Positions 6,801 to 39,055 of a stretch of 64,000 bases of DNA are shown here, piece after piece. A model generated the notes under the pieces. That model was not told the DNA's origin, did no database searches, and saw only the letters and a program-made list of their open reading frames with translations. The position numbers and the translations under genes are program-made. Source of the stretch: Antedon mediterranea (taxonomy: Eukaryota > Echinodermata > Crinoidea > Comatulida > Antedonidae). The stretch is taken from NCBI RefSeq assembly GCF_964355755.1, contig NC_092680.1:15601001-15665000 (forward strand). The letters are read 5' to 3'. Numbering within the stretch: the first letter of the stretch is position 1; every line of letters starts with the position of its first letter.

Positions 6801-9800
6801 ATTCTTTCTTTATTGGAATATTGAAACAAAATACCAACAGATAATGTTTAAATTGGTTGAAAAATAACAACTTTTAATTTTGCATTGTTATCCCTGCTAA
6901 TAAAGTGTTATTTCCGGCGAACTAGAAAGGTGCCATTTATCATGGATTTTGCGTGCGAGAGTGCCATTTCCGGCCATCTAAGTGTGTCCTGTAACAAAAT
7001 TTGCTTTGCCACAACCCCCACCATGGGGGGGCTGTGGCTCAAATACTCAATATCTGATGTGCCCTTTTTATTGGCGGACCCCCCTCTCAAAAATGTCTGG
7101 ATCCGCCCCAGCATGGGTACATGTTAGTTTGGTAACGAGTTGACCAGCACCCTCTGATATATCTGAGATCATCTGAGTTTTCTGGACACCCCCTAAATGT
7201 GTCTAAAAGAATAATTTACAATACATAAATGTACTACAAAAATGTTGGAATCAGTGGCATTGTACTGTACAATTATTATATAAAAATATCAAAAAAAAAG
7301 AGAATATCAATATATATACATAAAATATAAATTCATTTAAAGGGAAATCATTTCAACAAATATACAGACATTCAATGAATGGAGGCTAGAATTATAGGTT
7401 CTGGTACTAAATATTTCAATAACTTAAAATAACAAAATTTCAATAATGGTGAGGCTCATTTTGTAACGAGATATAACATTTGTCTGTTGTACCAAGCTAT
7501 CCTTAAACAGAAATGACAGTTGATCAAGTAAATTTAGATTTTAAAACTTATTAATATTTCTAATTCACAGAGTTACAGTATGTTAAGAACTGGCCAGAGA
7601 GTGATTTAGGTTTGGGTCAAGTGTCGGGTGTGGCTGTTGACTCAAAAGGAACTGTACATGTGTTCCACAGAGGTGACAGGGTCTGGGATACCAGGTAGGT
7701 AGACAAAAATGCAGTGATATAACTATACTATTCTATCTATCAATAAAACTTACTTACAGAAACTACAAGAGTGGCCTTAAGCTCATCTGTTTATACTATC
7801 AAATTAAGTTTTACAAAATAGTTTGATTTGCCCAAATATGGTAGTGATATGACAGCATCATGTCCATATATAGGCATATTACATATTTTGTCACATATAT
7901 TTTGATAGACAGAGCTTTATGTCCTAATGAGATGAATTTTCCATACCTCTTTATGAGCAATTCAAATCACTTAAAACTGAACATACGTTTTTAATAGTTT
8001 ACTTCTCTTAACACTATAAAGAACATTCACTTTGCTTGTGTACCTTTTAGTAAGTCCCAACAGATGCTCCTTAAATGCTGTAATGAAGCTTCGTCATAAA
8101 AACTGGAAATTGTAAGGCTGTTGATGTTGATTTATGTAGTCAAATCAATTTCTCACCCTAAGAGTTTATTCCAAACAAGAACATTAGTCGAAATATCGAA
8201 TAAAATGATATGAAAGATTAATCCAATTTATTTATATAGTTCATTTGATCGCAACAACAACTTTGTAGGCAAAAGTGCCATAGAACAAGATACAGTGGTG
8301 ACGCTTGACAAAGACACAGGCAGTAAGAAAGAATCTTGGGGAGCCAGTCAGTAAGTACAATATATTATAGTATTTTATATAACACCTAAATAGATTCTTT
8401 TGGTTGGATGATTGTAGGTCACACGATAAAAATAAGTGCCCTATTTTTACGCTCATGAGTGCGGTGTATTTCTATATTTGTCGGGGGAAGACCAGATGGT
8501 GCAAGACGTTAACAACAGTACAGCAACAAAGCTTTGAGCATGCTCTTTGTTTAGTGGAATGGAAGAATGGAACTACGCCACCTTCCTTTCACCTCATGAA
8601 ATTATTTGTACCATTTCACTCATAAGCATTATTTCATTTCATTTTGTAGATTTTCTGTGGCATGCTGTCCATTATTTTTCAAGTAGATTCTTGACAAAAA
8701 TCTACTTTAGTCTATCGGCTTAAAAATATAAATTTTGGGTAGATTATTAGAAATGTGATTTAAATGCATATTTTGACATCACCTTTTCATATAATGTTTC
8801 AGTTGGCTGTTTTAAACATTGTTTAATGTTGGCGATACTAAAATTTGTATTGGTGCGTATCAGTTCTTAGAGATAGTTTATATAGAAATTAATTTCAGAC
8901 CCATCAACAATATTTATAAATTTGTTAAAAATGGTAATTTCTAAATACTGTTGAGGGAATGAATAGACGGTAGAACATTATATATGTTATTACCTCCGCC
9001 AAGGAGGTTATGTTTTCACCCCTGTATGTTTGTGTGTGTGTGTGTGTGTTTGTGTGTGTGTCTGTGAACAGCCTGGAGGCCACAGTTTTTATCCGATTCT
9101 AACCAAATTTGGACACAATGATATATGCCCAAAAAGCTCGGACGAGTTCGAATTTGAGGGGGAAAGGTCATAGGTCAAGGTCACAACTAACGAAAAACTA
9201 TTTTACTGCCTAGAGACCACAGTTTTGATCCGATTCTCACCAAAGTTAGCCACAATGATCAATGACACATCATATAATTGTGGTTAAATTTTAAAGGGTC
9301 AGGGTCAAAAATCAATGTCCACAAAAAAAAAAAAAATAAAAAATAAAAAAATAATAAAAAAAAAAAAAACCCTCAGTGGGACTTGAACCAGCGATCTCAA
9401 CTGTGAGTGGCTGGATACATAACCATTACACCACACTGTCATCCACAACTTTGTAGTGTGCAGTTAACATATTTACACTTAGAACTAATAAAAAAAAATG
9501 TAAAAAAAAAAATATTCAGGGGGCATTTTATGTTGGGGAATTTTACAGTAGGCGGAGGTTTGTACTCTCGGAGTACCCTCTAGTTATATTATCTTAAGGA
9601 TGAGTATCTGTTTTCATAACACATGATCCTACAGACTGTATCCTCACAAATTTCTTGTTATTGCTTGATTTAAAGAGTGATAAATATAGTTCCTTTATGC
9701 AAATCCAGCATCATTGCTTATACTGTGTTTCTTTTTTCTTTTTAACTTACCTTCCTTCCGCTCTGTCATGAAAGAAAAAATGAAGTATTTTATTTATTGT

Positions 9801-12800
9801 TTTTCAAAAAAATAAAACAATATTATTTCAACATCCTTGTGATATTATGCTAAGCAATCCAGCTTCTGCTTTGTCTAGAAAAAACAATTAAGTATTGTAA
9901 ATAATTGGTAAAATGTATTTATTATTGAAAACAAAATTGATAAATTAAACAATACTTCTTACAACTTTCTTGTGATGTCATATGCAAAGGAAAAAGTAGA
10001 CAAAACACAGAAAATAGATATTAGAAAAACCATTTTTCAATTCAAATATAACAACACGGAGCCATGTTTTTTTAAATAAATAAAATTGTTAGATGCCTCT
10101 ATATAATGTTTTCCACGGATCTAAACAAGTATGTGATAATACCTATATACATATTTGGTTGATGATCATAAATATAATATAATACATATCAGTTCAGTTC
10201 ATTTATTTTTTATTCAACTTATCACTAAGATGTACATCCAAAGAAATTAGTGAAGAATTGGACCAACAGGTGGTAAACACCTCTAAAACAGTCCGGTGCC
10301 AATTGCACAACGAGCCCAGTTATGATCAATGTAACCACCTACTCGTCTCGAAAGATGTACTTTAAGGTTCTTTAAAGTGCACATGAGCTTGATTTGTAGT
10401 CCTTATCCACGACTCGAGTGTGCCTCGAACCCTTGCTGATGTTGGCTTCGTAATAACGGTTCCACCACTCACTAGCCACTAACTTACTCTATAGTACATT
10501 TGTCAAAGTCCTTTGTTGAACTGTAGACATTCCTATTGAAAGTCTCTCCGTTGAATTATATTATCCATCAATTCAGTTCTTCTACCACGTCTTCCACTTG
10601 CACATTTCTCTCCCTCTGTTGTTACCATCACCAAGCTGTCACTTTTTCCAATGACTATACTTCCTCAATTGTCACTAAACTTCCTCAATTTCCATCTTGA
10701 TACTACTTTACAGCATACCATTCTCAGTAGGCACGCCTACTTCCCTTTTGTCCAAAAAAATGTGTGTCCTTCAGGCTCTGCGGCAAGTTCACATCTTAAG
10801 GACCTCAATTTTCTTTTCCTTTGTAAAGTCCAACTTTTACCATACTATATATAGGTATTTATTCATAAAAAAACACATAAATAGTACAAACAGAAGGCAG
10901 CCCAACGGCTGAACAATTCTGCAAACAACGTACAAAGTAAAAATTTTTAAGACTCTAACAACAATATAATATATACAAGTACACAGTAAATCAGATCATT
11001 AAAAAGACCCAGATAAACCAAAGCATGCGGTAATCACTAATTCGTTAATTATTATTAATGTTATAAACCTACAAAGTTTTAGTTTTAGAAGCTTCATTCA
11101 TTCTATAAAGCTACACTCCACACAAGTGCTTTAGCAAACTTGGCTTTCATTTGTATGTCTTTTGTTGTAGATCTTTTGACTTTCACACATCTGTCCTACC
11201 CTGATTTTGATTATTTATTTCAACAACAAAAATAATAATATAAGTTGAAGGTTACTAGGTAGGTTATTTAATACTTTATGTGATTGTTTTACATTTCACA
11301 TTATTTATTATTAATATGCTAAATGAATAGGTCATTCAATCTTATATTCATTTGTATGCTTTTATATCCATGACAAATATAAAATTATTATTTAACATTT
11401 TTTTCTTGTTTATGTAGGTTTTACATGCCACATGGCTTAACTATTGACCAAGAGGACAACATATGGCTAACAGATGTTGCATTGCACCAAATATTCAAAT
11501 ATCCTGCAGGTGGAGCTACACAACCGCTATTGACAGTTGGAGAGCGCCTTGTAAATGGTAACGATGATGCACACTTTTGTAAGCCTGCTGATGTTGCAGT
11601 AGAGGCAACTGGAGAATTCTTTGTTGCGGATGGCTACTGCAATTCACGTATAGTAAAGTTTTCACCAACAGGAAAACTACTTTTTGTATTTGAAAACCAT
11701 GGTCAAATTATACGTAAGTGATTATTCATAAAGTATTGAAGGTTTGCGTAATCAATATGTTGATATAAAGTTTGTTGTCTTTTCAGAACTATATATTCAT
11801 GGTGTATCGCAAATTATATCAACATTTTAGTATAGCAATGTATAAAGATAAGCGCCTAATAGTACAACCCCTTATTTTTTACCCCTATTAAGGGGATACT
11901 CCCCATGGAAAAAATCAGCGGCCAATGAATGGAAATAATAGCTATTCCATTTTCAAAAGTACATTTGTTTAGGGAATGTTTTAGTGCATGAAAGGAGACA
12001 GCGACTAGGCTGTTTATTACATATAAGATCTTGAAGGAAATCAACAAATTATTTTACTGTTGTACTTTGAAAAGGAATTGCCATAATTTTGAACCTTTTT
12101 TATTTGTCGTCCCCCCCCCCCCCCTTCAAATGGGAAAGTATTTCTCCATTACTATAGAGAATAATTTATAAAGTGTTCTTTTTCTAGAATTACAAGGACC
12201 ATTAAACATCCCACATAGCTTGACATTGATTCCTGAAAAAAATCAAGTTTGTGTAGCAGATCGAGAACAAGGACGTATTGTATGTATTGATAGTAACAGT
12301 GGCCAATTCATAAAATACTTCAAATCTAGTGAATTTGGAAGTGTCTTTGCAATAGAAAACAGTGTTGGTAAGGCAATTTTTGATTGGCAAAATTAATAAA
12401 ATGTTTTCCCATCTTCACTGAATAGGAAAAATAAAGGGCTCTGTTTTTCCAATTCTGTTCTGTGGAAAATTTGAGTTTTTAGAAGTCCTTGTGACAACCA
12501 AGTTGTAAAAAGTAACTTTAACCGTTTCTATTATACAACTAATGTATTTTTGAGTTAGATGGTACAAGTAATTTCTTGAGGTAAAATTTTGTTTTCATGA
12601 GGCAAGGAACAAATAAATTATTTGTACCATTGCATGTATAAAAAAACTTTCTTATTACTCTGATCTTGTTGTGAAGGAGATATGTGCGCATTTCTGTCGG
12701 TCTTTTTACACAAAATAAGTACTATTACACAATCATTAAATAGTACATATTATATAACACCTATATAAATTCCTGTCATTTGATTGGACGAATGTGGGTC

Positions 12801-15800
12801 ACATGGCGTGCAATAGTACGCACTATTCAACGATCGTTAAATAGTACTTTTTGAAACATTTTTGTGTACGAAAAAAAAACGTCTAGATGTTATATAAAAC
12901 AAATAATGAATGTTTTGTATTCGTGTAATGGTACAAATAATGGCACTTGGTGAATGATGAAAGGTTATATCAACTCGGCTTTGCCTCGTTGATATAACCT
13001 TTCATCATTCACCTCGTGCCATTATTTGTACCATTGCACTCATAAACATTCATTATTTGTATACTATTGCCAGCCATGTAACCCACAGTCTTCTAATTAA
13101 ATGAAAAGAAATTATTTCATAACCTATTCGTGCATGGTATTATTGAAAAGTTAATATTTATCTTTTGTTCCATATGTTATAATTTTTACACCATTTTGGT
13201 GAGAAGATTCCAAAAATTGCACCAGTACTCTAACCAAAGTTTGAGCTGATGCATTGATATGTTGTTACTTGGTGTTAGCAAAATTACCCTCGCTAGTCGC
13301 TCATTGGGCAACCTGCACCCCAAGACAAGGACTGATAATGAGAGTTAGGCTATAACTGGCTATATACATTGTACCTAGTTATTTTGTATTGGTGTTATTT
13401 GATATTTATTTTACTTTTTTTTCTTTAAACTTTTAATAAATTTTAATGTTACTTTTTGATTTAGTATTATATTATTTATACATTTGTTGTTTATAAATCA
13501 TAATATGATGTTCAAAACAATATAAATAATCATAAATTTTCATTCATTTAAATTATCCAATATTCTATGAATATTATAATGAGGACTATTCCATTATATG
13601 GAAAGGGGTGGCTATTTTTGTGTACTGTTCTGTACAATTGAATTGATTTGTTAGCAATATATATATGTTACTCTTATTAAAAAAACAATATAAAATCATA
13701 TAAATATTATAATGAGGATTATTCCATTATATTCTTGTACTGTTACAATAACAAAAAAAAAAATTACAATAAATATATTACTGTTATTAAATAAAATACA
13801 TTTTGTTATACCAGTATGTTTATTATTTTCAGATGGCAACATGTATGCTGTGAATGGAGCATCTCCAAGTGGGAATAAAGTGAAAATACAGGGTTTTAGT
13901 ATAGATATTGCAGATAAATCTATTTTGCAGAAATGGTCACCAGATGAGGTCAGTTTTTTATAAATTAGACAATTTTTAAAATTGTTCTTCATTAATCCAA
14001 ATGCCAACTTTATGTCAATGGCTAGTACTGTACTATGAAGACGGTTACTAAAACCAGTACTAGTATTTTGACCTCAATCAGTTTAGTGCGAATGGAGCTT
14101 TAGGCATATTTTCACTTGTTCAACTATGTATTATGTATAATATTTGTTTCTCATTCAGGGTTTTACCAAACCCCATGATGTAGCAGTGTCCCCTGATGGC
14201 AGATCAGTGTATGTGTCTGAAATCAATCCTAATTCTGTATGGAAATTTCAACTCGACTTAAGTATGTTATTGCATTATTATTATTACTATATTTATTAAC
14301 GATATTAGTATTGTTATGGTTTATTCAAATCAATTTTCATCATGACCCGAAGGCCAATTTGCGAAAAATGTTACAATAAAATAAATGGTAAAAACAGGTA
14401 CATTAAAAAACATCCAAATTCCTTCACTTGCACTGATGAAGGGCTAGTGTTGCCCGAAAGCTCTGCTAACTTTTTTGGCTGTTTTACTTCTCGTTTTGAT
14501 TTAGCTTTTCGCTTTTATTTTGTATCTCCATTGAGATCCAGCCACTGATACCCACAGCATTGTCATTTTTTCAGTAATTTGCCTTTGGATTTATATATAT
14601 ATATATATATACTCAGAGACAGCGCTTGCCTGATATATCTATCTATCTTGTTCAAGTACCTTCACTTGCACTAATGAAGGGCTAGTGTTGCCCGAAAGAT
14701 CTGCTAACTTTTCTGGCTGGCTTTATCGTTTTGATTTATCTGTTCGCTTTTTTGTTTGTATCTCCATTGAGATCCAGCCACTGATACCCACAGCATTGTC
14801 ATTTTTATTCTTTGGATATATATATTATATATATATATATATAGAGAGAGAGAGAAAGAGACAGAGAAAGAAAATTTATGAAATGAAAATAGATGTTCCC
14901 ACTGAAACTGTTAGAAATGGTATTGCTCTACATTCTGTATTACACCAAAGTTCTTCTTTTCTGTTCCTTAAATTATAACCCGATTTATTCTGTCTCTATT
15001 GGGAAATGAGTTGGTGCATCTTTAATGTAGGGAGGGTTTTTACAAATGTTTGACAAAGTTCTAAGCATCTGTTTTCCTGTGAAATGTAACTGCATAGCTG
15101 AAGTGCGTTGGTGCACAACGATTTCACACATACATGTTGTAGAAAGAGGATGATATTTAATACATGTTTAATTTATCCTACATAACTTATTCATTACTGT
15201 GATATACTCCATTTTATAATATAAATGCATTTACCAGAAAAGCTGTCGCTAGTAACTGCTAACAAATTATAATTATTGAAAAATGCTATTGAAAATTTGG
15301 GGTTTTTTTTTCTGAATAAGTACATCATATCTTGAATTATCTTAAATACCTTTGAATAGGACTTTAAGAACTATGCTCATTTTTCCCTCTTGATCATTCT
15401 TGAAAACTTATGATTTGAATTTATTAGGAAAATCACACAAATATATACAAAGAGATAACATAAATTACTAACATTACAAATAAATACATTTATAAGAGAT
15501 TTTCCAGGAAGCTTATTAGCTTATTTCCATTGGTATCCTTTTATAATCTAAAATAGCAAATATAAACATTGCAAAGTATTTTATTAGTATGGAAATTAGT
15601 GGTGATCAGACCATATTTTCTCTAACCCAGATTTTAATCTATTTAGGGAAGAAACACAAACAACATTTTGAGCCATATTGGTCTTCAAATGTCCACTGTT
15701 TTTAAAAATTCAACAAAAATAATTCACCAATCACAGTCACACTAGGTCATATTTCCCTTAATTAATAACTACAGTGTTTATAAATGATAATTTAAGATTT

Positions 15801-20669: not shown

Positions 20670-22125
20670 ATGTCTACACGAACATGTCAGCATTTCGACG
20701 TTCATCAACATTCGCCTAGAAAACCATTGAACGTTGATAAAGAATGCCCATCTAAAGCCTTTACGATTCGATCGAAAGGTGAGAGGATCCGACCGCCTCC
20801 GTCAGCGGGAGCATTTAGAGAGAATCCTGCCCCGCCATCAGGGTTCCGTTATTTCTACGACAGAGGTGATTTCCCTGTAAGCATATTACATAATGCTACG
20901 ATAAAGGTGGCCTGGCAGGTAAGATTTGTTTTATCCTATTTAAATAATAATAATGATATAAGCCTACTCATTGCTATATTGACTATCACTTATGCTTTAT
21001 ACTTGGTCATTTATTCGATGCATTCCAAGATAATTTGAACGATTTTAACTTTCGGACGGATGGATCACTTTTATTTCTGAACGTAATTGTCCTTTAAAAA
21101 CAAACTGAGGCTACAAACTACGACAGATATCAAATCAATGTCTGTCACCATATCTAATGAAATATACGGTAATACATTATACAAATATAATATGATAAAT
21201 AATTAATAGTGTTTTACTTTTTTATAGTGATGATAATTTATGTTGTGGCGATGTATTTTGTTGGCTAGCTCACTAGTAAATCTGTTATGTTACATGCTGA
21301 CAAACGTGTCACCAAATAACACATTTCAGAATTATAGAGATTCACTTTACAATTGCAACAGTTAGGCATATTGTTAGATGGAAACATTTGACTAAAATGA
21401 AGGGAATTTTTCCGTGGTTATACAACTAGTTAATTTATTAGAAATTCAATAGCATTCGACACTATAGCAATACAAATATATCAATATTCTATTCATAAGA
21501 AAAAAAAGGTACGTAGACAATGGTACTATAATGATAATAATGATAACAACCAGGTTAATGGTGTGTCCAGAGAGAGAAATAAAAGTTCTAATTTAATCAT
21601 TCATTAATTTATTTATTCATGCGCTTATTCTCATTTCAGGTTGAGATAGAAAAACTAGATTTTCATCATTATCTTCCTCTTTTCTTTGACGGGTTATCAG
21701 AAACAAAGCATCCCTACCAGTTTTTAGCTCGACAGGGTATACACGATATGCTGACCCATGGTGGCTACAAGGTCCTCCCAGTTATCCCTCAACTCATCTT
21801 ACCATTAAAGAAAGCTCTGATGACTAAGAACAAAGACATCATATGTGCTACGTTGAAGGTTATTCAGGATTTGGTAGTGAGCCATGAGCTAGCAGGGGAG
21901 GCACTAATACCGTACTACCGGCAGCTGCTACCCGTCATGAACCTATTCAAGAATACGAACAACAACCTAGGTGATGGTATCGAGTACGACCAATGGAAAG
22001 GATGCAACGTTGGTGATATGGTGAACGCTACGCTAGAGCTACTAGAGAGACGAGGCGGGCAGGACGCATACATAAATATCAAATATATGGTACCGACGTA
22101 TGAATCATGTGTATTGACATATTAA
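20670..22125 (+). CDS. Parkin co-regulated gene protein (PACRG)
   Basis: PACRG is an inner-junction protein of ciliary and flagellar doublet microtubules. There are two coding exons, 20670-20918 and 21640-22125, joined in phase 0 by gtaaga/ttcag sites to give 244 aa, close to the usual 250-260. Family landmarks in order are '[20 protein letters not shown]', 'FYDRGDFP', '[20 protein letters not shown]', '[20 protein letters not shown]', '[18 protein letters not shown]' and the terminal '[14 protein letters not shown]'. The chosen ATG opens a short variable N-terminus. The whole helical-repeat region lies in one uninterrupted exon, so the gene is intron-poor. The next gene, the PAL paralogue, is convergent. 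Confidence 0.95.
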
Positions 22126-25861: not shown

Positions 25862-28800
25862 TTACATATTGTTATCTTCGCGTAAAAACCTAAATACCCC
25901 CTCATTAATTACGTCAGCAACGTACACGTAGTTCCCGTCTGGCCCTACTGCGATGTCATGTGGCATTTGAAATCCCTGTTGGAAGAAGGAAAACAATTAT
26001 TATTTATTATTAATTTTAAAATTATTACAGTATGAACTGTATTGCCTGATCATGGATGAGATTATCTTAAAAATAATAATTAACCATTAATTTGAATTTT
26101 ACCGATATTAGAGAGCTTTCGCTATCTCAATCGGGAACGAGCCGCCGAGAAAGTAAGGGTTTTTTGAACGAGTACGAGATCGAGAACCGGTAATTCATGC
26201 TGGTTCTCGTTCCCGATCCGAGATAGCGAAAGCTCTCTATTAATGTTTACTTTCAAAATGTTACTACATTTTAACATTATTCTATCGTGTAACAATTAAG
26301 AAATGCATTGGTTGACTTGATTGCACATAAACACAATATCGTGTTTTTAAATAAATTACGTTACGTTATTAGTAACATGAGAACTTTGTCACTAGCAATG
26401 AACCATCAAAAATCGAATGTATTGCATTTTTTAGATTTATTTTCAAAATTGGCGTCAGTTTCAATTTACTGACAATGTTGAAGCGTAAAAAATCGTGTGT
26501 CATTTTAAAATGAGAAAATAAAACAAAACGTTACTGGAAACAAATAATGTGAGGAGTCAATATTCCTGGTTCTTGATAATATTATAGTATAGGTTGAAGG
26601 TGCACAAAAAAAAAACAAGTTCCCATGCTGCTACATAAACGAAGTGAATTTGAATCAGAAAACCAGGGTAACCACCCCACCCCCTCCCCACCCTACTCAT
26701 TACGACAGATACCAGGTCATATGATCAATATTATGGTTGAATGTCAATATACTTTCATTTCTGTTTGGTTATATATATTTTTATTTTACGATATTTTAGT
26801 TAAGTTTAAATTGTAGGCCTATGGCTCAATTTTTGTCGCTAAGAGTTTTGTTCTAGTGCTATATCTCTCTTGCACCATTTAGTTGTGCATATGTGTTGGT
26901 TGTCGTTCTTTTGCAGATCTCTTTCATTAGTATATGGTATGAATATGATAGGGGCATAAGACATTATTATGTGCTCGTTTTTTTATTTGACATCATCCAT
27001 TGTGTTTGGCCAGTCGACATTTTGGCCAACATGGTGAATTTCTTACCTGTGGCGGTGCCCATGTTTCAAGTATTTCACCTGTTTGTATATCTAACGTGTA
27101 TCCTTGTGTTGGAATCCTTTCTGACAGCCCATTTACTGCGTACATAACATCTGATGGTAGAAACAAAATCATCTTTTTCAAATAATAGTATAACAACATT
27201 TAGGTTAGGACATCGATCGTCGTAATATTTAAAATAAGATAACTTTATTCGTCAACACGTAGAACTTATGTAGGCCTACTTTTAACCTAGCTATGAATTA
27301 AACGGTCAATATTGGGCGGGAAAAAAATTAGTTGTAATAGTTTTGTGGACTTCATTAAATCTCTTTCTTGAAGAAAAATAATCTTTATATAAAATTCAAC
27401 AGAACACTCACCTAAAACCCTGTCGTACGCTATTGCGAAAACCTGGCCTCCAAATTCCCTCTTTTCTATTTCATGAATGAAGTCACCGGTTATCGTATTG
27501 AAGCATTGTATTCTTCCGTTCTCTCTGTCAGCGACGCAAATCATCCGACGGGACTCGACAATAGCCAAACTATGAGGAATGTTGAAATTCGATTTTGCTA
27601 GGCCTAATTATAAAATAGGAAGAATTAATTATGTCTTCATTTTTATTAATATATTAATGATAATGTGGAACATTTTTGTCGAGGTGACTTCCAAATTTCC
27701 TGTGCAAACACTATTTTGTTACTGTACAGTAATTCAGCTAAACACAATTTAATTTTAAAACTTAAATGATTTTATTAAAACATCTGAGATTGTCAATATT
27801 CTTGCAGTCAGGTCTTCATCACATATTTATTATGTTTCAATATTTTGATTATTAAAAAAACTCATTAAAATGCGTCCCTGAAGTTCTACAGCCAGTTGTT
27901 TTAAATGACGCTTTCATTAATTCCCTTGATATATAATAATTTATAACTAATTTTACCACCGGTACAGCACTGATGTGTAATGGGCATTTATTTTTTCATT
28001 AGGCAGGTTCATAACCTCTTATATTGCAAATAATTCATCATAAATATCTATTATAGGCAACTGTTACCTTTATTATGTGCTTTGATCTCTTGAAGAAATG
28101 TCCCATTGGACGAAAACTTTAACACCCGTTTGTTGCAATAACTATAAATAAAACATATTTTTAATAACTAAATTGATAACAAGGTTAATAATCTTTCTAA
28201 TTTCGGTTCAACTTAGACTTAGAAGTTTATTTTTAATTCCATGTACATATCGCATTCCCCTTTTTTTTAGTATCATGAAACCATATTTTAAATGTTCCTG
28301 ATAGGAATCAATATGTAGATTGTTCACGCGATTTAAATAGGTAATGATAATGATAATAATTTTCAAAGAACTATGAATGTGTTTTATTTGCTGAGTGATG
28401 TTTTGGTAATATTCTTAATAAACGTTATGTGGAGCCAACCAGGAAAGGAGGAACGAATAACATTAACAAGTAACCGACAGTACATACGTACTACTGTATA
28501 AGCTCCTTAACCACGTGAAGGGACACAATAATAATAACTTTCTTACCCATCTGCTACGAAAACATTTCCAGTTGCTTTGTCGACAGCTACATCAGTGGGT
28601 TTACAGAAGTGATGGTGATCTTCTCCGGGAACAAAGGCTTCGCCTAATGTCATCTCGGTCTTAAATGTTTTACCAGAGACTTTGAAGACTTGGTGAAGTG
28701 CAACGTCAGTTAGCCAGAGGTCCCCATTGTAGTCACAAGTTAGACCATGCGGCATATAGAATCTGATGTAAATTGAAGGGTACAATATTATTTACAGGTA

Positions 28801-31800
28801 TAGCATGCAAATATACCGTGTGTAAAGATATGAAGTAAATTTGAGAATACTGTGACATTTCTTTCGTTATGCTACAACCGGACATGGTGTACCACAAAAC
28901 TTGCTTTAAAGAAGTAAGAAGTAGGAAGAGGTAAACATTTTAAAAAAAGTAATAAAATTAAACAGAAGTATGAAATAAAAAGAAATAAGAAGATGTGATA
29001 AGAAATATTGATTAAAATGAAGTAAGAAGTATGAAGAAGTAAGAAGGAAGTAAGAAAAGTGTGAGAAGTAAAAATAGAAGAAAAAGTAAGAAGTAAGATG
29101 TAGGAAGAAGTGAGAAGAAAGAAATAGAAAGAAGAATAAAATGTAGTAAGAAGTAAGAAATAAGAAGTGAGAAGGAAAAGAATTAAGAAGGAAGAAATAA
29201 ACAATAAGAAGTAAGAAGTAAGAAAAGTGGGGGAAGTAATAATAAGAAGAAGAAGTGAGAAGAGGTAACAAGGAAAAAGAAGTATAAAATGAAAATAAGA
29301 AGTAAGATGTAGGAAAGAGTGAGAAGAAGTAAGAAGTGAGAAGTAAAATGAATTAAGAAGAAGTAAAAAATAAGTATGAAGAATTTAGAAATATATAGAA
29401 GAAATAAAAGAAGTGAAAAGAAGTAAAAAAAATAAGGAGTGAGAAGTAGTAAAAAGAAATAAGAAGTAGGAAAATGTAAGAAATAAGAAGAAGTGAGAAA
29501 AAGTCAGAAGAATTAAGAAGCAGTTAGAAGATGTAAGCAGTAAGAAGAAGTAAGTAGTTAGAAGATGTAAGCAGTAAGAAGAAGTAAGTAGTTAGAAGAT
29601 GTAAGCAGTAAGAAGAAGTAAGTAGTTAGAAGATGTAAGCAGTAAGAAGAAGTAAGTAGTTAGAAGATGTAAGCAGTAAGAAGAAGTAAGTAGTTAGAAG
29701 ATGTAAGCAGTAAGAAGAAGTAAGTAGTTAGAAGATGTAAGCAGTAAGAAGAAGTAAGTAGTTAGAAGATGTAAGCAGTAAGAAGAAGTAAGTAGTTAGA
29801 AGATGTAAGCAGTAGTTAGAAGATGTAAGCAGTTAGAAGAAGTAAGTAGTTAGAAGATGTAAGCAGTAAGAAGAAGTAAGTAGTTAGAAGATGTAAGCAG
29901 TAAGAAGAAGTAAGTAGTTAGAAGATATAAGCAGTAAGAAGAAGTAAGTAGTTAGAAGATGTAAGCAGTAAGAAGAAGTAAGTAGTTAGAAGATGTAAGC
30001 AGTAAGAAGAAGTAAGTAGTTAGAAGATGTAAGCAGTAAGAAGAAGTAAGTAGTTAGAAGATGTAAGCAGTAAGAAGAAGTAAGTAGTTAGAAGATGTAA
30101 GCAGTAGTTAGAAGATGTAAGCAGTTAGAAGAAGTAAGTAGTTAGAAGATGTAAGCAGTAAGAAGAAGTAAGTAGTTAGAAGATGTAAGCAGTAAGAAGA
30201 AGTAAGTAGTTAGAAGATATAAGCAGTAAGAAGAAGTAAGTAGTTAGAAGATGTAAGCAGTAAGAAGAAGTAAGTAGTTAGAAGATGTAAGCAGTAAGAA
30301 GAAGTAAGTAGTTGGAAGATGTAAGCAGTAAGAAGAAGTAAGTAGTTAGAAGATGTAAGCAGTAAGAAGAAGTAAGTAGTTGGAAGATGTAAGCAGTAAG
30401 AAGAAGTAAGTAGTTAGAAGATGTAAGCAGTAAGAAGAAGTTAATATTAAAATGAAGTAAACATTAAAAAAGAAATGAGAAGAATTAAAAATAATTAGGA
30501 AGAGGTAAAAAGAAGTGAGAAGTAAAAAAGAATTAAGAAGTAAGAAGAAGTAAGTAGTTAGAAGATGTAAGCAGTAAGAAGAAGTTAATATTAAAATGAA
30601 GTAAACATTAAAAAGAAATGAGAAGAATTAAAAATAATTAGGAAGAGGTAAAAGGAAGTGAGAAGTAAAAAAGAATTAAGAAGTAAGAAGAAGTAAGTAG
30701 TTGGAAGAAGTAAGCAGTAAGAAGAAGTTAATATTAAAATGAAGTAAACATTAAAAAAGAAATGAGAAGAATTAAGAAGTAAGAAGAAGTAAGTAGTTGG
30801 AAGAAGTAAGCAGTAAGAAGAAGTTAATATTAAAATGAAGTAAACATTAAAAAAGAAATGAGAAGAATTAAGAAGTAAGAAGAAGTAAGTAGTTGGAAGA
30901 AGTAAGCAGTAAGAAGAAGTTAAAATTAAAATGAAGTAAACAATAAAAAAATGAGAAGAATTAAAAATAATTAGGAAGAGGTAAAAAAAATTGAGAAGTA
31001 AAAAAGAATTAGGAAGTAAGAAATAAGTAGTTGGAAGAAGTAAGCAGTAAAAAGAAGTTAATATGAAAATGAAGTAAACAATAAAAAGAAATGAGAAGAA
31101 TTACAAATAATTAGGAAGTTATAAGTAAGAATTAAGTAGTAAAAAAAAGAATTAATAATTAAGAAAGAAAAATTAAGTATAATAATTAATAATAATGTTA
31201 ATACCTGTCAGCTCCTGCTTTCTCTTTAATATAACCACCTCGTTTGCTAAGTAGTAACAAGACGTCTGCCTCTATTGGTCCACGTTCATTGCCATTGATA
31301 AATATGTTATTTTCATCAAAGTCACTGTGAACGTCAATTATTATTACCACATTAACACAAGACACTGGGTATACTCATTTTAACAATAAGCAAAATATTA
31401 TTATTATCGAAATGGTTTTCTTTGCTTTTCGATTTCTTTCACCATGTAGAAATGTTTCTCTTTTCAAATACGATTTCTCAATTAAAACATTAAAATACTA
31501 TACAACTCTGAGGCGCAATCCAATATGTCATGCCTTAAATAAGTAGTGAGTGGAGCTTGGTGGTTAACGTTGTTGCCTTCCTATGCCAAGGTCCAGGGTT
31601 CAATCCTGGCCTAGTGTTACGGCTCTTTTAACTCCATTTCCTAAGCCTCAAATGAGACTTTATAAGCACGATAAATTAATAATAGTTTATCCATCCTGTA
31701 ATTGGCGAGTTGCTCGCTGTTGGATGCGTATAAAATAAAGATCCGCATTAACCCACCAAAGCTCATTATTAAACTCTTTGAGTCTATTCAGTACTTTTAT

Positions 31801-34800
31801 AATTTTAGAGCGAAAAATCTAAAAATAACCTACCTCAATTGCCATGTCCTCTCTCCTCGATGAAACACAAAAACGTCACCAGTGTCTGGCTTAGCGTCAA
31901 CTCCCGTTACTTGTCCAAGATTAACATTAGGGGCGGGCCACGTTAGGTCCTGGACCAATTCAGGGTCGTACCCCCAGGAACTTGAGTATGTTTCATCAAA
32001 ACTCGTGCCTATTCTGTTATCTTGAAGGTTTAATTGCTGAGAACTGTCGTCATAATCGTAAGTGGCGTCATAACTTTCGTCCTGCCATTTTATAGTTTCC
32101 AAAAGTCGTCCTAAATCGTTTAACTTTTCGTCACATAATGGATCAACAAACTGTGAATAGTACCTAGACAGGTAGTGTGCATCTGTTTCGGTGCTAAAAA
32201 TATTAAATAATACGTTATGCCGACTTTGACGTTTGAGAAATTATGTCTAGTGTAATGTTTTGCTAACATAAAGAATCAATAATTTGTACAAAGAAAACAA
32301 TTGTAGAATTGTTATAGGAAACATCTCTTCAAGTTGTACTAAAAACAAGACGATTCCCGTACAAAAAGCTTAGCTTAAATTAACTTAAAATTAAGCAATC
32401 AGTTTGATGTCAGTCGGTTCAATTGTATGATGGACGGTGCAGATTTACCATGGTTTTTATAATGCTGTTGTTCTTGTTTCATGTTGTTATTAAAATACTT
32501 ATTGTGTAAAAAACGAAATAGTGTATGTACAATATTGTTTACGTTTTGAAAAACACTGAATTGTTTTGCATTGGTAAAAAGAAACCAAAGAAAGGATTCA
32601 TAATGTTGATAGCCAAGTAAAAATGAAACTTTAGTAGTAAATTTTGATGTTGGAAATCATAAATTTCTTAAAAATAAACATTGACAACGTTTATTTTTTA
32701 TTTAGGTTAATAAGAATAAATTACCGTATATATAATAGTTATATGATATGTTCGTTTAATCAAATGTGAAGTAGGCTTAAAAACAAATCCTAGCCCTTGA
32801 CATTATAGCTTTCATAGCTTCATCTTCAATTATATTTGAACTGCTCAGCGTTAAATGTCAGTACAATTATCATTCCTCTAACTAATATGTTTTATACTTA
32901 CTATTCCCCCGACAGAAGTTTCAACTCTAGTGCAGACGAATCTTGTATATCACCTAATATCAATATTAAAAAATAATAAAATAAATAAAATACTGATTTT
33001 CCCTCTGAGTTAACTTAATTCTTTCTTTCTAAAAATAGTTTTAACCACTCTCACTTTTGATTAAACCAACTCTTGTTGAGGTTTATCATTGTTTGCCCTA
33101 TTGTCCCATGTCCTATTGGATATGGGTTATGGCAATTTCATCACAATTGTTGACATTATCACTTTAACATTTGAACAAAATATCTCCTCTTTGATTCTGT
33201 CTTCTAGACGTCCGGCAAATTACACAAAATTCTGTGATACTAATGAATATTGTGTCACTTTTTTACATTTTTTTTATTAAAAGAAATACAATTAAAATAG
33301 TTTGCTATTCATAAGTCTGTGTAGAGGGTTAGCCACTGCAAAATGTAGGCGCATTCGTGTATTCTTTTAGTAGGTGGGTAGGTAAATGGAAATAATTATG
33401 CAGCCTAATAAATTTGTGATTACCGTCTTTGTAATGAACCATTAGGACTATATCTCTGATGTAAGCTCCGCCAACAATTAACACTTGCTGTTTCCGCTCT
33501 CCAATCATATCACATGATCTGCTCCAACTGTAAATAATTGAACTTGGACCGCTGCATACAGTCTTCTCGATATGTGGATTACATGACCTAAATATATTAG
33601 TATAAAAGGTAAAGGGATTCAAACAATGTAGGACTACTGCAAATTGTAATAATATGCATCCTATATGATTATGTTCTCCGATAAGAAAAAATACCTTGCT
33701 ACACATTGGTACAATGCATTACAAATTTGAAATATTGTGCCTACAATTTAATTTGTGCTGCATTTGAAAGAATGCGCTACCCATTTTAGCAACATGCTAC
33801 AAAAGTGAAACTGTAAAGTACTGGAGAACGGAGCGGTATAAAGGGTTCCTCTGCTTTTTTCTTGTTTTCTTTTTGGTTATCTTAGGATTTTATGGATCAT
33901 TTGTGTGTTTAAAGCGCTTAGAAACATTGTATTAGGCGCGTTATATAAGCCTACCATTAATATCATTATTAAACAAATTGTGCTACACTCTCTAAATAAT
34001 AATGCTGCACATTTGAATTGTGCTAATTATTTAAAACCATTACAATAGAAAAGATTTTTTACCCATTATAAACAATTTCCTACCCATTGGAGAATAATGT
34101 GTTTCTCATCAGAAAAACAGTACGCTATTGCCAACATGTGTTTTAACAAATGTACTATCCTTTTTAAACATTATGCTAATATGCTCACCAAAACTATTTT
34201 CAGTAAATAAGTTCAGCTCTCATGTCTACACTATCAAACTTTAGGTGATAACAAAATGTAATGAGCTCATATATAATATATATGAGCACATTACATTTTT
34301 TTATCACCTTAAGTTTTGATCCATATTATTATGGACACGAAGACGTCATATCACTACCATGTTAGGTCATATCACTACCATATTTCGACACATCAAATTT
34401 TTTGTCAAACTTGTTTGATAGTGTAGACAGAGCTTTAGATACGTACCAAGCTGTATTTGATACAGATGGCTCTTCCAGACATCCGTACACAGTCATTGCA
34501 TCAACCGATTCATTTTGAGGTAGGGGTACATATCCAACTAACAAAAAAATAAAAGTTGTATCCCTTGAATTACTGTATACTTATGTTTTAATGAATATTT
34601 CAAAACCAAATTAATATCGTCCTTATACGTAAATGAGTGGACTGTTTTATATAACATCGTAAGAAATAGCTTCAATGTACCAATGACTGGGAATCATTAT
34701 CAAAACATTGGCACCATACCTTTCTACCAATGGTTGTGTTTGGCTCAAGTTTTGAGCTAACGTATCTTGTAGACGGGTTATGTTCACAGTCAATGTATAG

Positions 34801-37800
34801 CTTCACTATGCAGAAACCATTTTAATTAGCTCTAACTTACTTTAACATAATTTTAGGCCTACTGTAACGGTTACTACGTACTGTGTACAATTTTGATACG
34901 AAACCGTATCGTTTTCAATTGTGGGAGATCCGGGAATATACATTATGTCTGTTTTACAAATCACAATGCATTTGTGGATAGGTATTTTACCAGGGAAGAG
35001 TCACTCTTGTGTGCTTATAGTAGTCACGTGTGCCTATAGTAGTCGTGTGTGCTTAGAGTAGTCGTGTGTACTTATAGTATGGGTGCTTATAGTAGTCACA
35101 TATGTTCATAGTTATAGTCGTGTGTGCTTATAGTATTTATGTGTGTTTAGAGTGGTCATACTTATAGTATGGGTGCTTATAGTAGTCACATGTTTATAGT
35201 TATAGTCGTGTGTGCCTATAGTATTCACGTGCGCTTATAGCAGTCATTGTGTGCTTATAGTAGTCACATGTTTATACTTATAGTCGTGTGTGCATATAGT
35301 ATTCATGTGTGCCTATAGTATTCATGTGTGCTTATAGCAGTCATTGTGTGCTTTTAGTAGTCACATGTTTATACTTATAGTCGTGTGTGCTTATAGTATT
35401 ATGTGTGCTTATAGCAGTCATTGTGTGCTTATAGTAGTCACATGTTTATAGTTATAGTCGTGTGTGCTTATAGTATTCATGTGTGGTTATAGCAGTCATT
35501 GTGTGCTTTTAGTAGTCACATGTTTATACTTATAGTCGTGTGTGCTTATAGTATTCACGTGTGCTTATAGCAGTCATTGTGTGCTTATAGTAGCCACATG
35601 TTTATACTTTTAGTCGTGTGTGCTTATAGTATTCATGTGTGCTTATAGCAGTCATTGTGTGCTTATAGTAGTCACATGTTTATACTTATAGTCGTGTGTG
35701 CTTATAGTATTCATGTGTGCCTATAGTATTTATGTGTGCTTTTAGCAGTCATTGTGTGCTAATAGTAGTCACATGTTTATACTTATAGTCGTGTGTGCTT
35801 ATAGTATTCATGTGTGCCTATAGTATTCATGTGTGCATATAGCAGTCACTGTGTGCTTATAGCAATGAACTATAACATGCTTGAGTTTAATGGAAGAAAT
35901 CATCTTATGTTTTTGTTTTATTTCATCAAGAAACTCACCAATCCAACTTTGTTCTGTACTTAGTGATACACCTGCACAAGCGTACATGTCATTCTAAAAA
36001 GGAAAGAAAAAAATACATTTCTCTCAAATGTTTAAGCTTTAAAGATGTATTGTCCCCCTGAAAAATAATTGTTGTTGTTGAATATGCCATTTTAATGTCA
36101 CATAATAGTTATTGACCAAAAATTGGATCGAAACAAAAATTATTTACCTGAAAAAACTAGAATTTAAAGCCAAAAATTGTCAAATTGGCTGCCAGCCAAT
36201 GGATTTTTGGTTGAATATAACCATTTATCATGTTATTTTATAAGTGAAAACATTATTTTTTTTACATTTTTTTTTTCTACGGAAGTGATTCACTTTATTA
36301 AAACTACAAAATAACCTATTCAAAATCTGATTTAAATAATCTTCTTGTTTTTGGGGAACAATACATCTTTAAACAATATCATAAATATCAAGTGTATCGA
36401 CTTAAAAATAATATTAATTTAATGACGTCATCAGGACAAAACAGAGATTGAAAAATGTTCATTTGCAAACTGTAGTATACGTGATAATAAACTCGCGTGT
36501 ATCGAGTTAAATTCGAGGGCTGAATGATCAAGTAAACATTTGATGACTTGATATAATCTAAAGCTCTGTCTACCATCAAAAAAGCGATGTGCCCATATAT
36601 GGACACATCACACTTTTTTGTCAAACTAGTTTGATAATAAACTCGCGTGTATCGAGTGCAATTCGAGGGCTTGATATTATATCTAAAGCACTGTCTACGC
36701 TATCAAACTTTATGTGACAAAAACAATGTGATGTGCCCATATATGGACACGATAATGTCATGTTATATTTGGCCACATCACACTTTCTCAAACTAGTTTG
36801 ATAGTGTAGACATGGCCACGCACGCCACATATACTACACACGTATGTGACATATTTGGCCACATCACACTTTCTCAAATTAGTTTGATAGTGTAGACATG
36901 GCCACGCACGCCACATATACTACACACGCATGTGACACGCATGTGACACGCGAGGTAATGATAATTCAATTAATACACTCAACATTGGTCCATCCAATAA
37001 TTGATTTTCAACTCAAATATCTGTTCATACCTATTAAATCTAAATTCGTATTAATTGATATGCAAAATTGGTCACAATGAACAATTCTTAATAGAAAGAG
37101 TCACTTGCGAACGTTAACATTAAATGTCATCGACACTCGTAGTTTAGTAGTAATCGAAAGGCAATTACAGAGCATAGAATGAAGAAGGATATACTATTTG
37201 TCTTTACCTTATAGGCCTAGAGTTACGAACCTTCGAACAAGAAGGAGGTATCATTACTACGTTGTGTTTTTAGCCCGGTTTTTAGTTAACAAAGAATTTA
37301 TATCGTGCCGTGTACATTAAAGAAAACAATACCTAGTGAAATAGTGATACGGATCCAACCCAGAAGAAATGTATTTGATTTGGACCAACACACGCCATAG
37401 TGAGTTAGTATCGAATCACTAAAGATGTAACGTTTAATACACGTAGTGCATGGGGTAACGTATTTTTATATCGCTTGAGAAAATGTGATTATTTTTTCTG
37501 CAGGCGCGGGTACAAGAGTAACGTAATTATGATATCGCTTGAAACAATTCGAAAAGTTTTTCTTTCAGACGCAAGTACAGGAGAAATATAATACTATGAT
37601 ATCGCTTGAGAAAATCGAACAGTTTTCTCTAAATGTGCTAAAAAAGAAAATACAATAACAAAAAATTTAGCGCTGCCATTCCAATTCATAAGCGGAATAT
37701 GGAGAAATGCGTCTTCGCGTCAGTGACTAGATTCATAATTCAATTCAATTAAAAAATCATTCAATTCAACTCAAAATCAATTTGAAAATTAAGTTGATTA

Positions 37801-39055
37801 TTTTTAATAATTGTATTGCATGCGAAAACCGTAGTTATTGAATAACCACTTATTAGCAAGATTCTATCCAGAATTTCAAAACAATGACTAAGAGCTATTT
37901 GAAACTATGTTAGCCCGTGCTTACAACGCTTTCGTTATAATAATTATACAGCATCGCATGGTGGTAAGTGACGTTGGTAACGCTATATAAACGTTTTTAT
38001 CGTTTTAGATAACATGTTTACGTTGGTAACGCGTTCGCGCCATGGAATCAGTATAAATAGTGCTTGTGCTTTCACTATGTAAAGGCTTTTATACGTTATA
38101 GACAGCATAACATGGTGATAAGTGACGTTAGTAACGTGTTTGTAACATCCTTTTTATGTTTCCATCAGTATTTTAGATGAACAACAAATGTGTTTGCGCT
38201 ATATATAGAACGATATAAATCATTATGCTCTTTCTCATAAAGTACACTTTTCATTACAAAGTCTATTTATAGGTTTCCAATTTACATTTGCTGTTAGTTC
38301 TTAATTGTTTTCGACTGCGTTTGAAATATACATCAATTTGAATGACATGTGTAGGTAGTTAAAATTGCATTTTAACATTTACGGGTAATTCGCAATAACG
38401 CTTTTGGAAAAACACAACTGTATTTAAAGAAGATGTTGTTTAAACCGTCTCAAGCCAACACCCTTTTCGTCGGGGTAATTTAAAACGATCTTTTATAATG
38501 TGTTTATTGGTGTGTTTAGGTGACCGAAAGAAGTACTTTGAATGGCTTGAATAAAGGTAGTCGGTTTGGTTGGAATATACAATTATGATTATTTTTTGCA
38601 TCAGTGATAGTAATCAATGTTATCCTTTATAGATCTCAATACTGAAAGTCATGATATCAATTTAAAAACATTACGTTGTTTTAAGCCTTTATTCGACACG
38701 GCAAAATGTTCTAATGATCCTATAAAAGCATTCAACATGCCTATAATAACAATTTAAAAGTTCTTACCTCTTCTGGGATTACTTTATCCATTCGTATAAT
38801 CTTTGTGTGGACAAAAGGGGGATCGACACTTTCGGTATTTTCGTCCTCTTCGTCCGTCCCATCCTTACCTTCGGCGACACCATTCATGCCGTCCTCATTC
38901 TCATCACTCTCTATAAGTATCCCCTGTTTTATTTCACCCGCTGTATCTTTATCAATTGACGGTACATCCTTAGACGTTGGTAACGTATTTGTAGTAACGC
39001 TGAAAAGGCCTAGGAGCAAGGCTACGACCACGACATACAGGTGAAAGATGTTCAT
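25862..39055 (-). CDS. Secreted PAL paralogue with a degenerate half PHM domain
   Basis: Twelve exons (high to low): 38768-39055, 35939-35993, 34447-34537, 33424-33587, 32902-32953, 31834-32193, 31205-31324, 28547-28762, 28068-28141, 27412-27597, 27047-27150 and 25862-25975. The frame closes exactly (607 aa). Residues 1-24 look like a signal peptide, followed by an acidic stretch. Residues about 83-216 match the first PHM sub-domain, but the usual copper-binding His-His is Asp127-Ala128 ('VDAMTVYGC'); a lone His196 remains ('VLMVHYKD'). The second PHM sub-domain (HTHH and the Met ligand) is absent. The PAL domain is intact: Arg329 (FHRGER), His382 (MPHGL), Tyr450 (ADGYCN), His482 (IPHSL), Arg498 (ADRENGRI), Met574, His576 and Asp577 (MPHD). 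The protein ends there, with no membrane anchor. Predicted activity is cleavage of peptidyl-hydroxyglycine to amide plus glyoxylate, without hydroxylation. Confidence 0.92.
26108..26242. mobile_element. MITE with 'TTAGAGAGCTTTCGCTATCTC' ends
   Basis: About 135 bp in an intron of the PAL paralogue. The left arm is tagagagctttcgctatctc and the right arm ..gagatagcgaaagctctcta. A second internal pair is 'atcgggaacgag' and 'ctcgttcccgat'. It is a nearly perfect foldback. Confidence 0.75.
28905..31190. repeat. 2.3-kb purine-rich satellite-like tract in a PAL-paralogue intron
   Basis: The + strand is almost free of C and built from 'aagaagtaagaag' words, so the minus strand, which is the gene's sense strand, is C/T-rich. 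It begins as irregular GAAGTAAGAA repeats (28905-29520), becomes the regular 34-bp array (29524-30440), and ends in a longer unit of roughly 100 bp ('gttaatattaaaatgaagta', 'aacattaaaaaagaaatgag') to about 31190. Open frames in it are artefacts of low complexity. Confidence 0.9.
29524..30440. repeat. 34-bp minisatellite array
   Basis: The unit is gttagaagatgtaagcagta followed by agaagaagtaagta (34 bp), repeated more than 20 times with few changes. A variant block that skips part of a unit ('gcagtagttagaagatgtaa') occurs near 29810 and again near 30095. A larger block of several units therefore appears to have been copied, which indicates recent expansion. Confidence 0.92.
31542..31765 (+). 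repeat. tRNA-derived SINE, copy 1
   Basis: 'gcttggtggttaacgttg' (A-box-like) and 'cagggttcaatcctgg' (B-box-like) lie about 40 bp apart. A body follows with 'cctcaaatgagactt', 'tccatcctgtaattgg' and 'gttggatgcgtataaaataa'. A reversed copy is at 44518-44720. Confidence 0.6.
34207..34437. mobile_element. MITE, 'AGCTCTGTCTAC' family, copy 3 (expanded)
   Basis: The ends are cagctctcatgtctacacta and ..gtttgatagtgtagacagag. The interior has an extra palindrome, 'tcatatataatatatatga'. It lies immediately downstream of exon 3 of the PAL paralogue, within 10 bp of the splice donor. Confidence 0.7.
35000..35870. repeat. Minisatellite with about 76-bp higher-order unit
   Basis: Variants of 'gtgtgcttatagtattcat' (about 19 bp) alternate in a fixed order: ..tagtagtcacatg, ..tttatacttatagtcgtgtg, ..tgcttatagtattcatgtgt, ..gcttatagcagtcattg. 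This makes a unit near 76 bp repeated about nine times in an intron of the PAL paralogue. Confidence 0.88.
36038..36375. mobile_element. MITE, 'AAAGATGTATTGTCCCCC' family, copy 2
   Basis: The left end is aaagatgtattgtccccctg and the right end ..ttggggaacaatacatcttt. The interior includes 'ctacggaagtgattcacttt', shared (reversed) with the partial copy at 63294-63405. Confidence 0.75.
36556..36910. mobile_element. Cluster of 'AGCTCTGTCTAC' MITE copies with a local tandem duplication
   Basis: A short copy spans about 36556-36640 and a fuller copy about 36681-36820. The stretch 'ggccacatcacactttctca' through 'cacgccacatatactacaca' is then repeated directly (36771-36842 and 36852-36926). 'taataaactcgcgtgtatcg' also occurs twice (36485 and 36635), so the block has been shuffled by local duplication. 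Confidence 0.7.

What the first reader, a model, noticed from the sequence alone, without database searches (positions are those of the whole stretch)
33424..39055. PAL paralogue keeps half a PHM domain with the copper site destroyed
Residues 83-216 align with the first PHM sub-domain by cysteine pattern and 'VHY.D', but the CuH histidine pair (VHHMLLFGC in PAM) is VDAMTVYGC and the whole second sub-domain is gone. The exons have good splice sites and the 607-aa frame is intact, so the remnant seems maintained. It might serve as a folding, targeting or peptide-binding module for a lyase-only enzyme.
Basis: partly seen in the sequence, partly recalled or inferred. Interest (0 to 1): 0.75.

Follow-up and report, generated by a model that had tools for sequence, protein, structure and literature searches.

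The report
Lyase keeping a dead half-monooxygenase
Feather stars carry a peptide-amidating lyase that still bears half of the partner copper enzyme with its copper site gone, and relatives in starfish, sea urchins, sea cucumbers and acorn worms keep the same odd combination, so the broken half is probably useful and not just debris.

Summary
The window is from the feather star Antedon mediterranea. Twelve minus-strand exons (39055..25862, GT-AG, in phase) encode exactly the annotated 609-aa protein P0001: hydrophobic start, PHM domain I (about 80-199), one strand of domain II, linker, complete PAL propeller. The CuH pair His107-His108 is Asp-Ala; no CuM exon was found in the locus. The architecture recurs in another crinoid, a sea star, three echinoids, a sea cucumber, an unnamed close relative of it and two hemichordates. 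In the PAL tree these ten proteins group apart from true PAMs, support 87/91. With an amphioxus candidate, none of 11 shows more than one of three CuH ligands. In five close pairs domain I is 67-91% identical, PAL 60-89%; in four distant pairs domain I falls below PAL (32-42 against 46-53%). Seven PAL residues checked are kept in 11 of 11. Best reading: an ancient soluble PAM paralogue, a trans-acting lyase with a pseudo-PHM accessory domain. What that domain does is inferred. A genuine PAM gene lies on the plus strand of the same window.

The parts
38768..39055 (-). exon 1: start codon, hydrophobic signal-like segment, acidic stretch, start of domain I (aa 1-96)
   Evidence: gene model equals P0001; hydrophobic segment; helix 2-21 in the model
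35939..35993 (-). exon 2: PHM domain I, Cys102 (rat Cys81 equivalent, numbering recalled)
34447..34537 (-). exon 3: destroyed CuH pair (VDAMTVYGC), Cys134
33424..33587 (-). exon 4: Cys147, Cys156, family-specific Cys170, and VHYKD with the third CuH histidine
32902..32953 (-). exon 5: 52 nt, first strand of the former CuM half, no copper ligand
   Evidence: strand 207-214 in the model
31834..32193 (-). exon 6: linker with conserved Cys237, start of PAL (HRGERTW)
31205..31324 (-). exon 7: PAL
28547..28762 (-). exon 8: PAL, His382 (YMPHGL; zinc-ligand role recalled)
28068..28141 (-). exon 9: PAL, Tyr450 (YCN); the intron before it has no counterpart in the window's PAM
27412..27603 (-). exon 10: PAL, His484 (IPHSL) and Arg500 (VADREN)
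27047..27150 (-). exon 11: PAL
25862..25975 (-). exon 12: PAL, His578 (MPHD), stop codon; no membrane segment
3815..14263 (+). genuine PAM paralogue, approximate ends: end of the CuM half ([11 protein letters not shown]) and PAL exons; the PHM part before that was not seen in the window
   Evidence: tblastn, exon reading

Best explanation
The gene is a PAM paralogue, made by duplication of a PAM gene at the DNA level, most simply no later than the common ancestor of echinoderms and hemichordates. It lost the exons for most of the CuM half of PHM, the membrane anchor and the cytosolic tail, and kept the CuH beta-sandwich, a linker and the PAL propeller. The protein is most likely secreted or granule-stored and cannot hydroxylate peptides. 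It probably acts as a soluble lyase that finishes alpha-hydroxyglycine peptides made by PAM elsewhere (second step of amidation, in trans). The copper-free half domain, predicted to be a folded sandwich with the four PHM cysteines and a family-specific extra cysteine pair, is kept as a non-catalytic accessory: a fold-stabilising, granule-sorting or partner-docking module tethered to PAL by a flexible acidic linker. Shown by sequence: architecture, loss of copper ligands and of the CuM half, intact PAL residues, conservation in the family. Inferred: lyase activity, secretion, disulphide pairing, and the role of the half domain.
Against: No activity, secretion or localisation data. By the hydropathy threshold only 6 of 11 half proteins show a hydrophobic start; three of the other five models look cut at the N-terminus. 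In four distant pairs domain I is less conserved than PAL (42, 35, 32, 41% against 48, 51, 53, 46%), though above the linker (19-21%). The loop 171-177 beside Cys170 has pLDDT under 50. The half-domain fold was not tested by fold search, because the propeller filled the lists. Absence of dibasic sites is weak evidence, since basic residues are few in these linkers. Clade support of 87/91 is not decisive. Both genes in one species are seen only for Antedon (window) and Acanthaster.
Confidence: 0.6

Rival explanations
1. The half domain is a decaying relic with no present function; only the PAL part is under selection.
For: Copper ligands are gone and differ between classes; the amphioxus protein is still further reduced and the annotated Acanthaster protein lacks the start of the domain. 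In four distant pairs domain I is less conserved than PAL.
Against: Domain I is about as conserved as PAL in close pairs and more than the linker in 9 of 9 pairs compared; the four PHM cysteines are kept in 10 of 10 proteins that cover all four, and two extra cysteines are invariant in alignment A3 of ten; AlphaFold predicts it folded. Decay over the age of Ambulacraria should have erased it (inference).
Confidence: 0.12
2. Docking or inhibitory pseudoenzyme: the half domain pairs with true PAM or PHM (for example competing for the CuM half or for a chaperone) and brings the lyase to it, or damps amidation.
For: The domain is homologous to the half that packs against CuM in PHM; PAM is present in the same genome, and in Acanthaster both proteins are listed with the same longest-contig length of 780,615; the linker is long and predicted disordered.
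Against: No interaction data. In one search, 16 domain-I columns are 75% or more one residue in six PAMs and never that residue in the ambulacrarian halves, so the old contact surface may be gone.
Confidence: 0.2
3. The protein is not a lyase of the amidation path; the propeller has a new substrate and the whole protein a new role (for instance in matrix or mineral).
For: The position of rat Met784 varies (Met in 2 of 11 half proteins); acidic linkers.
Against: Seven checked PAL residues are kept in 11 of 11; Met784 also varies in genuine PAMs.
Confidence: 0.08

Closest known systems
Bifunctional PAM (PHM-PAL), EC 1.14.17.3 / 4.3.2.5
   Same: Domain order, PHM domain I homology, PAL domain, PAL intron phases and places
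   Different: CuH ligands lost, CuM half missing, no C-terminal membrane segment
Soluble monofunctional PAL (scorpion PALm, likened there to Drosophila PAL-2), as described in PMC6669573 (passages read)
   Same: Lyase-only paralogue existing beside bifunctional PAM; soluble; key residues kept
   Different: Scorpion PALm is 356-366 aa, signal peptide and catalytic domain; here a pseudo-PHM half and a long acidic linker are kept
CuH-site mutants of rat PHM (H107A, H108A, H172A; PMC6123673, passages read)
   Same: The same ligands are lost; such PHM is reported inactive
   Different: Laboratory point mutants with the CuM half present

Membership tests
PAM, bifunctional | three CuH histidines in PHM domain I | tested here: not met
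   Asp127, Ala128, His196 in P0001; at most one of three seen in each of 11 proteins, one of which covers a single site
PAM, bifunctional | CuM half (HxH and Met ligands) | tested here: not met
   no PF03712 in P0001; no CuM exon found in the locus, with working control
PAM, bifunctional | PAL domain | tested here: met
PAM, bifunctional | C-terminal membrane segment | tested here: not met
   hydropathy: present in 3 of 3 echinoderm PAMs, absent in 11 of 11 half proteins
PAL (peptidyl-alpha-hydroxyglycine lyase) | zinc histidines and catalytic Tyr/Arg (roles recalled from the rat structure) | tested here: met
   11 of 11 keep Arg533, His585, Tyr654, His690, Arg706, His786 equivalents
PAL (peptidyl-alpha-hydroxyglycine lyase) | cleaves alpha-hydroxyglycine to amide and glyoxylate | not testable with these tools
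   needs an assay
Cu2_monooxygen (PF01082), N-terminal domain | profile score above the curated cut-off | tested here: met
   42.8 bits, cut-off 30, for the 147-aa fragment; not listed for the full-length protein; 6 of 10 full-length family members matched
PHM domain I fold | match to PHM by fold comparison | tested here: inconclusive
   the propeller filled the fold lists, so domain I was not tested
Half-PHM PAL family (proposed here): amphioxus P0133 | half domain shared by common descent | tested here: inconclusive
   For: profile of ambulacrarian halves E 2.9e-9 against 0.0054 for PHM; [VI]Cx[GS][PQ] and Cys-x8-Cys, each in 0 of 157 PAMs; 0 of 16 PAM-specific columns kept. Against: PAL groups with vertebrate PAM 80/82, joining the halves costs 4.02 log units, AU p 0.178; it shares 1 of 7 half-specific columns

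The most novel reading that the evidence does not exclude
A pseudo-PHM-PAL gene arose before the deuterostome radiation, is still carried by Ambulacraria and amphioxus, and was lost in vertebrates; in it a dead monooxygenase half became a docking module that turns PAL into a separately secreted, partner-directed lyase, so that the two steps of peptide amidation can be uncoupled and regulated apart.
Probability: 0.25. Interest if true: 0.75.

Novelty: new variant of a known kind. Interest (0 to 1): 0.55.

Why it matters
PAM is the enzyme that amidates animal neuropeptides, and separate PHM or PAL genes are known, but I found no description of a conserved fusion of a dead PHM half to a live-looking PAL (ten searches; open-licence library only, judged mostly from listings). 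It suggests that echinoderms and hemichordates have an extra, soluble lyase beside PAM. It gives a natural test of whether the CuH domain has a job apart from copper, and warns that some proteins annotated 'PAM-like' in these animals should not be able to hydroxylate.

Tried and rejected
Search of the own genome for PHM-C (genome search) did not complete: the same request each time; so the number of PAM genes in the genome and the 5' exons of the window's PAM stay unknown. Fold searches of the two models showed propellers in the 50 rows listed, so PHM did not appear; this says nothing about domain I. My first gene model (588 aa) missed a 52-nt exon and used a wrong acceptor, so it lacks 21 residues after position 199; searches used it. 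The fragments span that gap, but the matches to PHM reported there end at 203, four residues past it. In one search the Acanthaster row wrongly held its PAL part (pattern missed); corrected. One search crashed and was rerun. The domain-I tree (ligand columns removed) split 11 halves from 6 PAMs at 98/100, but the amphioxus branch is 3.29 long, so I do not use it for amphioxus. A retro-copy origin is rejected by the shared introns. The PAL tree held 21 of 170 fetched proteins and the window's PAM; its PAM rows are mostly vertebrate. P0121, an Apostichopus record whose frame begins in the linker, was not counted among the halves. Class names of the animals are recalled, not looked up.

Protein searches list at most 120 rows and score only the candidates that share most words, so absence of half proteins in protostomes or vertebrates is not shown.

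Full report
What is there. The window is genomic DNA of the feather star Antedon mediterranea: a protein found by homology and named as from that species (P0001, 609 aa, 'peptidyl-glycine alpha-amidating monooxygenase B-like') is reproduced letter for letter by twelve minus-strand exons between 39055 and 25862, all with GT-AG sites in phase. Exon 1 has a hydrophobic start; exons 1-4 encode PHM domain I; exon 5 (52 nt) the first strand of the CuM half; exons 6-12 a linker and the whole PAL propeller. My own first model lacked exon 5 and gave 588 aa.

Is it PHM? Yes for domain I. The fragment matches rat PHM entries at E 9e-11 to 1e-8 from IRM to VHY and passes the Pfam cut-off of Cu2_monooxygen (42.8 against 30 bits), although full-length scans of the protein did not list that family. 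A profile of 154 PAM PHM domains finds nine of ten ambulacrarian proteins at E 7.4e-15 or better; the tenth, the short Acanthaster protein, was not listed. Copper ligands: PMC6123673 (passages read) states that H107, H108 and H172 bind CuH and that changing any one to alanine inactivates PHM. Here they are Asp, Ala and His. No CuM half was found: 139 PAM domain-II sequences match no credible exon in the locus, but do match the genuine PAM at 3819-3932 on the plus strand.

It is a family. Profile searches bring proteins of the same build, PHM-N plus PAL without PHM-C, from Anneissia (crinoid), Acanthaster (sea star), Lytechinus, Strongylocentrotus and Diadema (echinoids), Apostichopus (sea cucumber) and an unnamed relative close to it (P0006), Saccoglossus and Ptychodera (hemichordates). 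In the PAL tree these ten, Antedon included, form one group (87/91) and the window's own PAM falls with the PAMs. His107 is lost in 10 of 10 proteins (amphioxus included) that cover the site; His108 survives in the three echinoids, Apostichopus and P0006, His172 in the two crinoids and two hemichordates; none shows more than one ligand. The annotated Acanthaster protein begins behind the His107-His108 site. In five close pairs the half domain is 67-91% identical, PAL 60-89%, linker 46-78%; in four distant pairs the half domain is at 32-42%, PAL 46-53%, linker 19-21%. So it is constrained, well above the linker, but over long times less than PAL. The four PHM cysteines remain in 10 of 10 that cover all four, and two further cysteines (Antedon 170 and 237) are invariant in the ten-row alignment A3; in A4 one is shifted by a residue and the other gapped in several rows. 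That they pair is my inference.

Origin. Five introns read in the PAL part of the window's PAM have the same phase in this gene, three at the same place and two within one residue of a gapped alignment; this gene has one more, before the YCN motif (hand reading). So the copy was made from DNA, not from a transcript. In Acanthaster the half protein and a full PAM are listed with the same longest-contig length, 780,615, which suggests linkage there too. None of 11 half proteins has the C-terminal membrane segment that 3 of 3 echinoderm PAMs have. A hydrophobic start passes the threshold in 6 of 11.

Amphioxus. P0133 (520 aa) has a still shorter version: four cysteines, Asp-Arg at the His pair, no domain-II strand. 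The ambulacrarian half profile scores it E 2.9e-9 with 0 of 1100 shuffled sequences listed, and it shares the [VI]Cx[GS][PQ] motif and Cys-x8-Cys spacing, each absent from 157 PAMs, most of them vertebrate (the motif is in 10 of 11 halves, the spacing in 8 of 11). It keeps 0 of 16 PAM-specific columns but shares only 1 of 7 half-specific ones. Against: its PAL sits with vertebrate PAMs (80/82), though joining it to the halves is not rejected (p 0.178). One origin or two cannot be told.

Expression. P0006 is a 681-aa reading frame listed with a longest contig of 3001 bases. For a gene that spans 13 kb in Antedon this fits a spliced transcript, but I did not see the contig. Apostichopus and Lytechinus entries are named as isoforms.

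Literature. Ten searches of the open library showed no description of a half-PHM lyase; most papers were judged from the listing, and passages were read in PMC6529398, PMC6123673, PMC9793003, PMC5006589 and PMC6669573. Subscription papers are not covered.

Verdict. The larger result is a pseudo-PHM-PAL family found in crinoids, a sea star, echinoids, a sea cucumber and hemichordates. Novel as a variant of a known enzyme, with an open question that can be tested directly.

Noticed in passing
window 3815-14263 (+): Genuine PAM gene (CuM end, linker, PAL) on the opposite strand, about 11.6 kb from the half-PHM gene; its 5' part is not in view.
   Followed up: partly
window 21592-22122 (+): Exon of a Parkin co-regulated protein (PACRG) gene, Pfam E 9.5e-69, between the two paralogues.
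   Followed up: partly
window 29019-31058: About 2 kb purine-rich, strand-asymmetric tandem array (units of 17 and 34 bases, GC skew 0.40 in 28001-32000) inside an intron of the half-PHM gene.
   Followed up: no
window 35008-35862: Tandem array with 39/78/97-base units in the intron between exons 2 and 3.
   Followed up: no
window 36765-36937: Two copies of an 86-base unit; similar stretches ('tttgatagtgtagaca') seen by eye near 34.2 and 36.6 kb look like a short mobile element.
   Followed up: no
window 5900-6500 (+): Reading frames that by eye resemble the end of a reverse-transcriptase retroelement within the PAM gene; no Pfam match for 5900-6238.
   Followed up: partly
P0122, Babylonia areolata: PAM with two PHM units in tandem before PAL, like the four-PHM Lymnaea precursor mentioned in PMC6669573.
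   Followed up: no
P0010, Operophtera brumata: PAL prediction with several near-identical repeated blocks, perhaps an assembly artefact.
   Followed up: no
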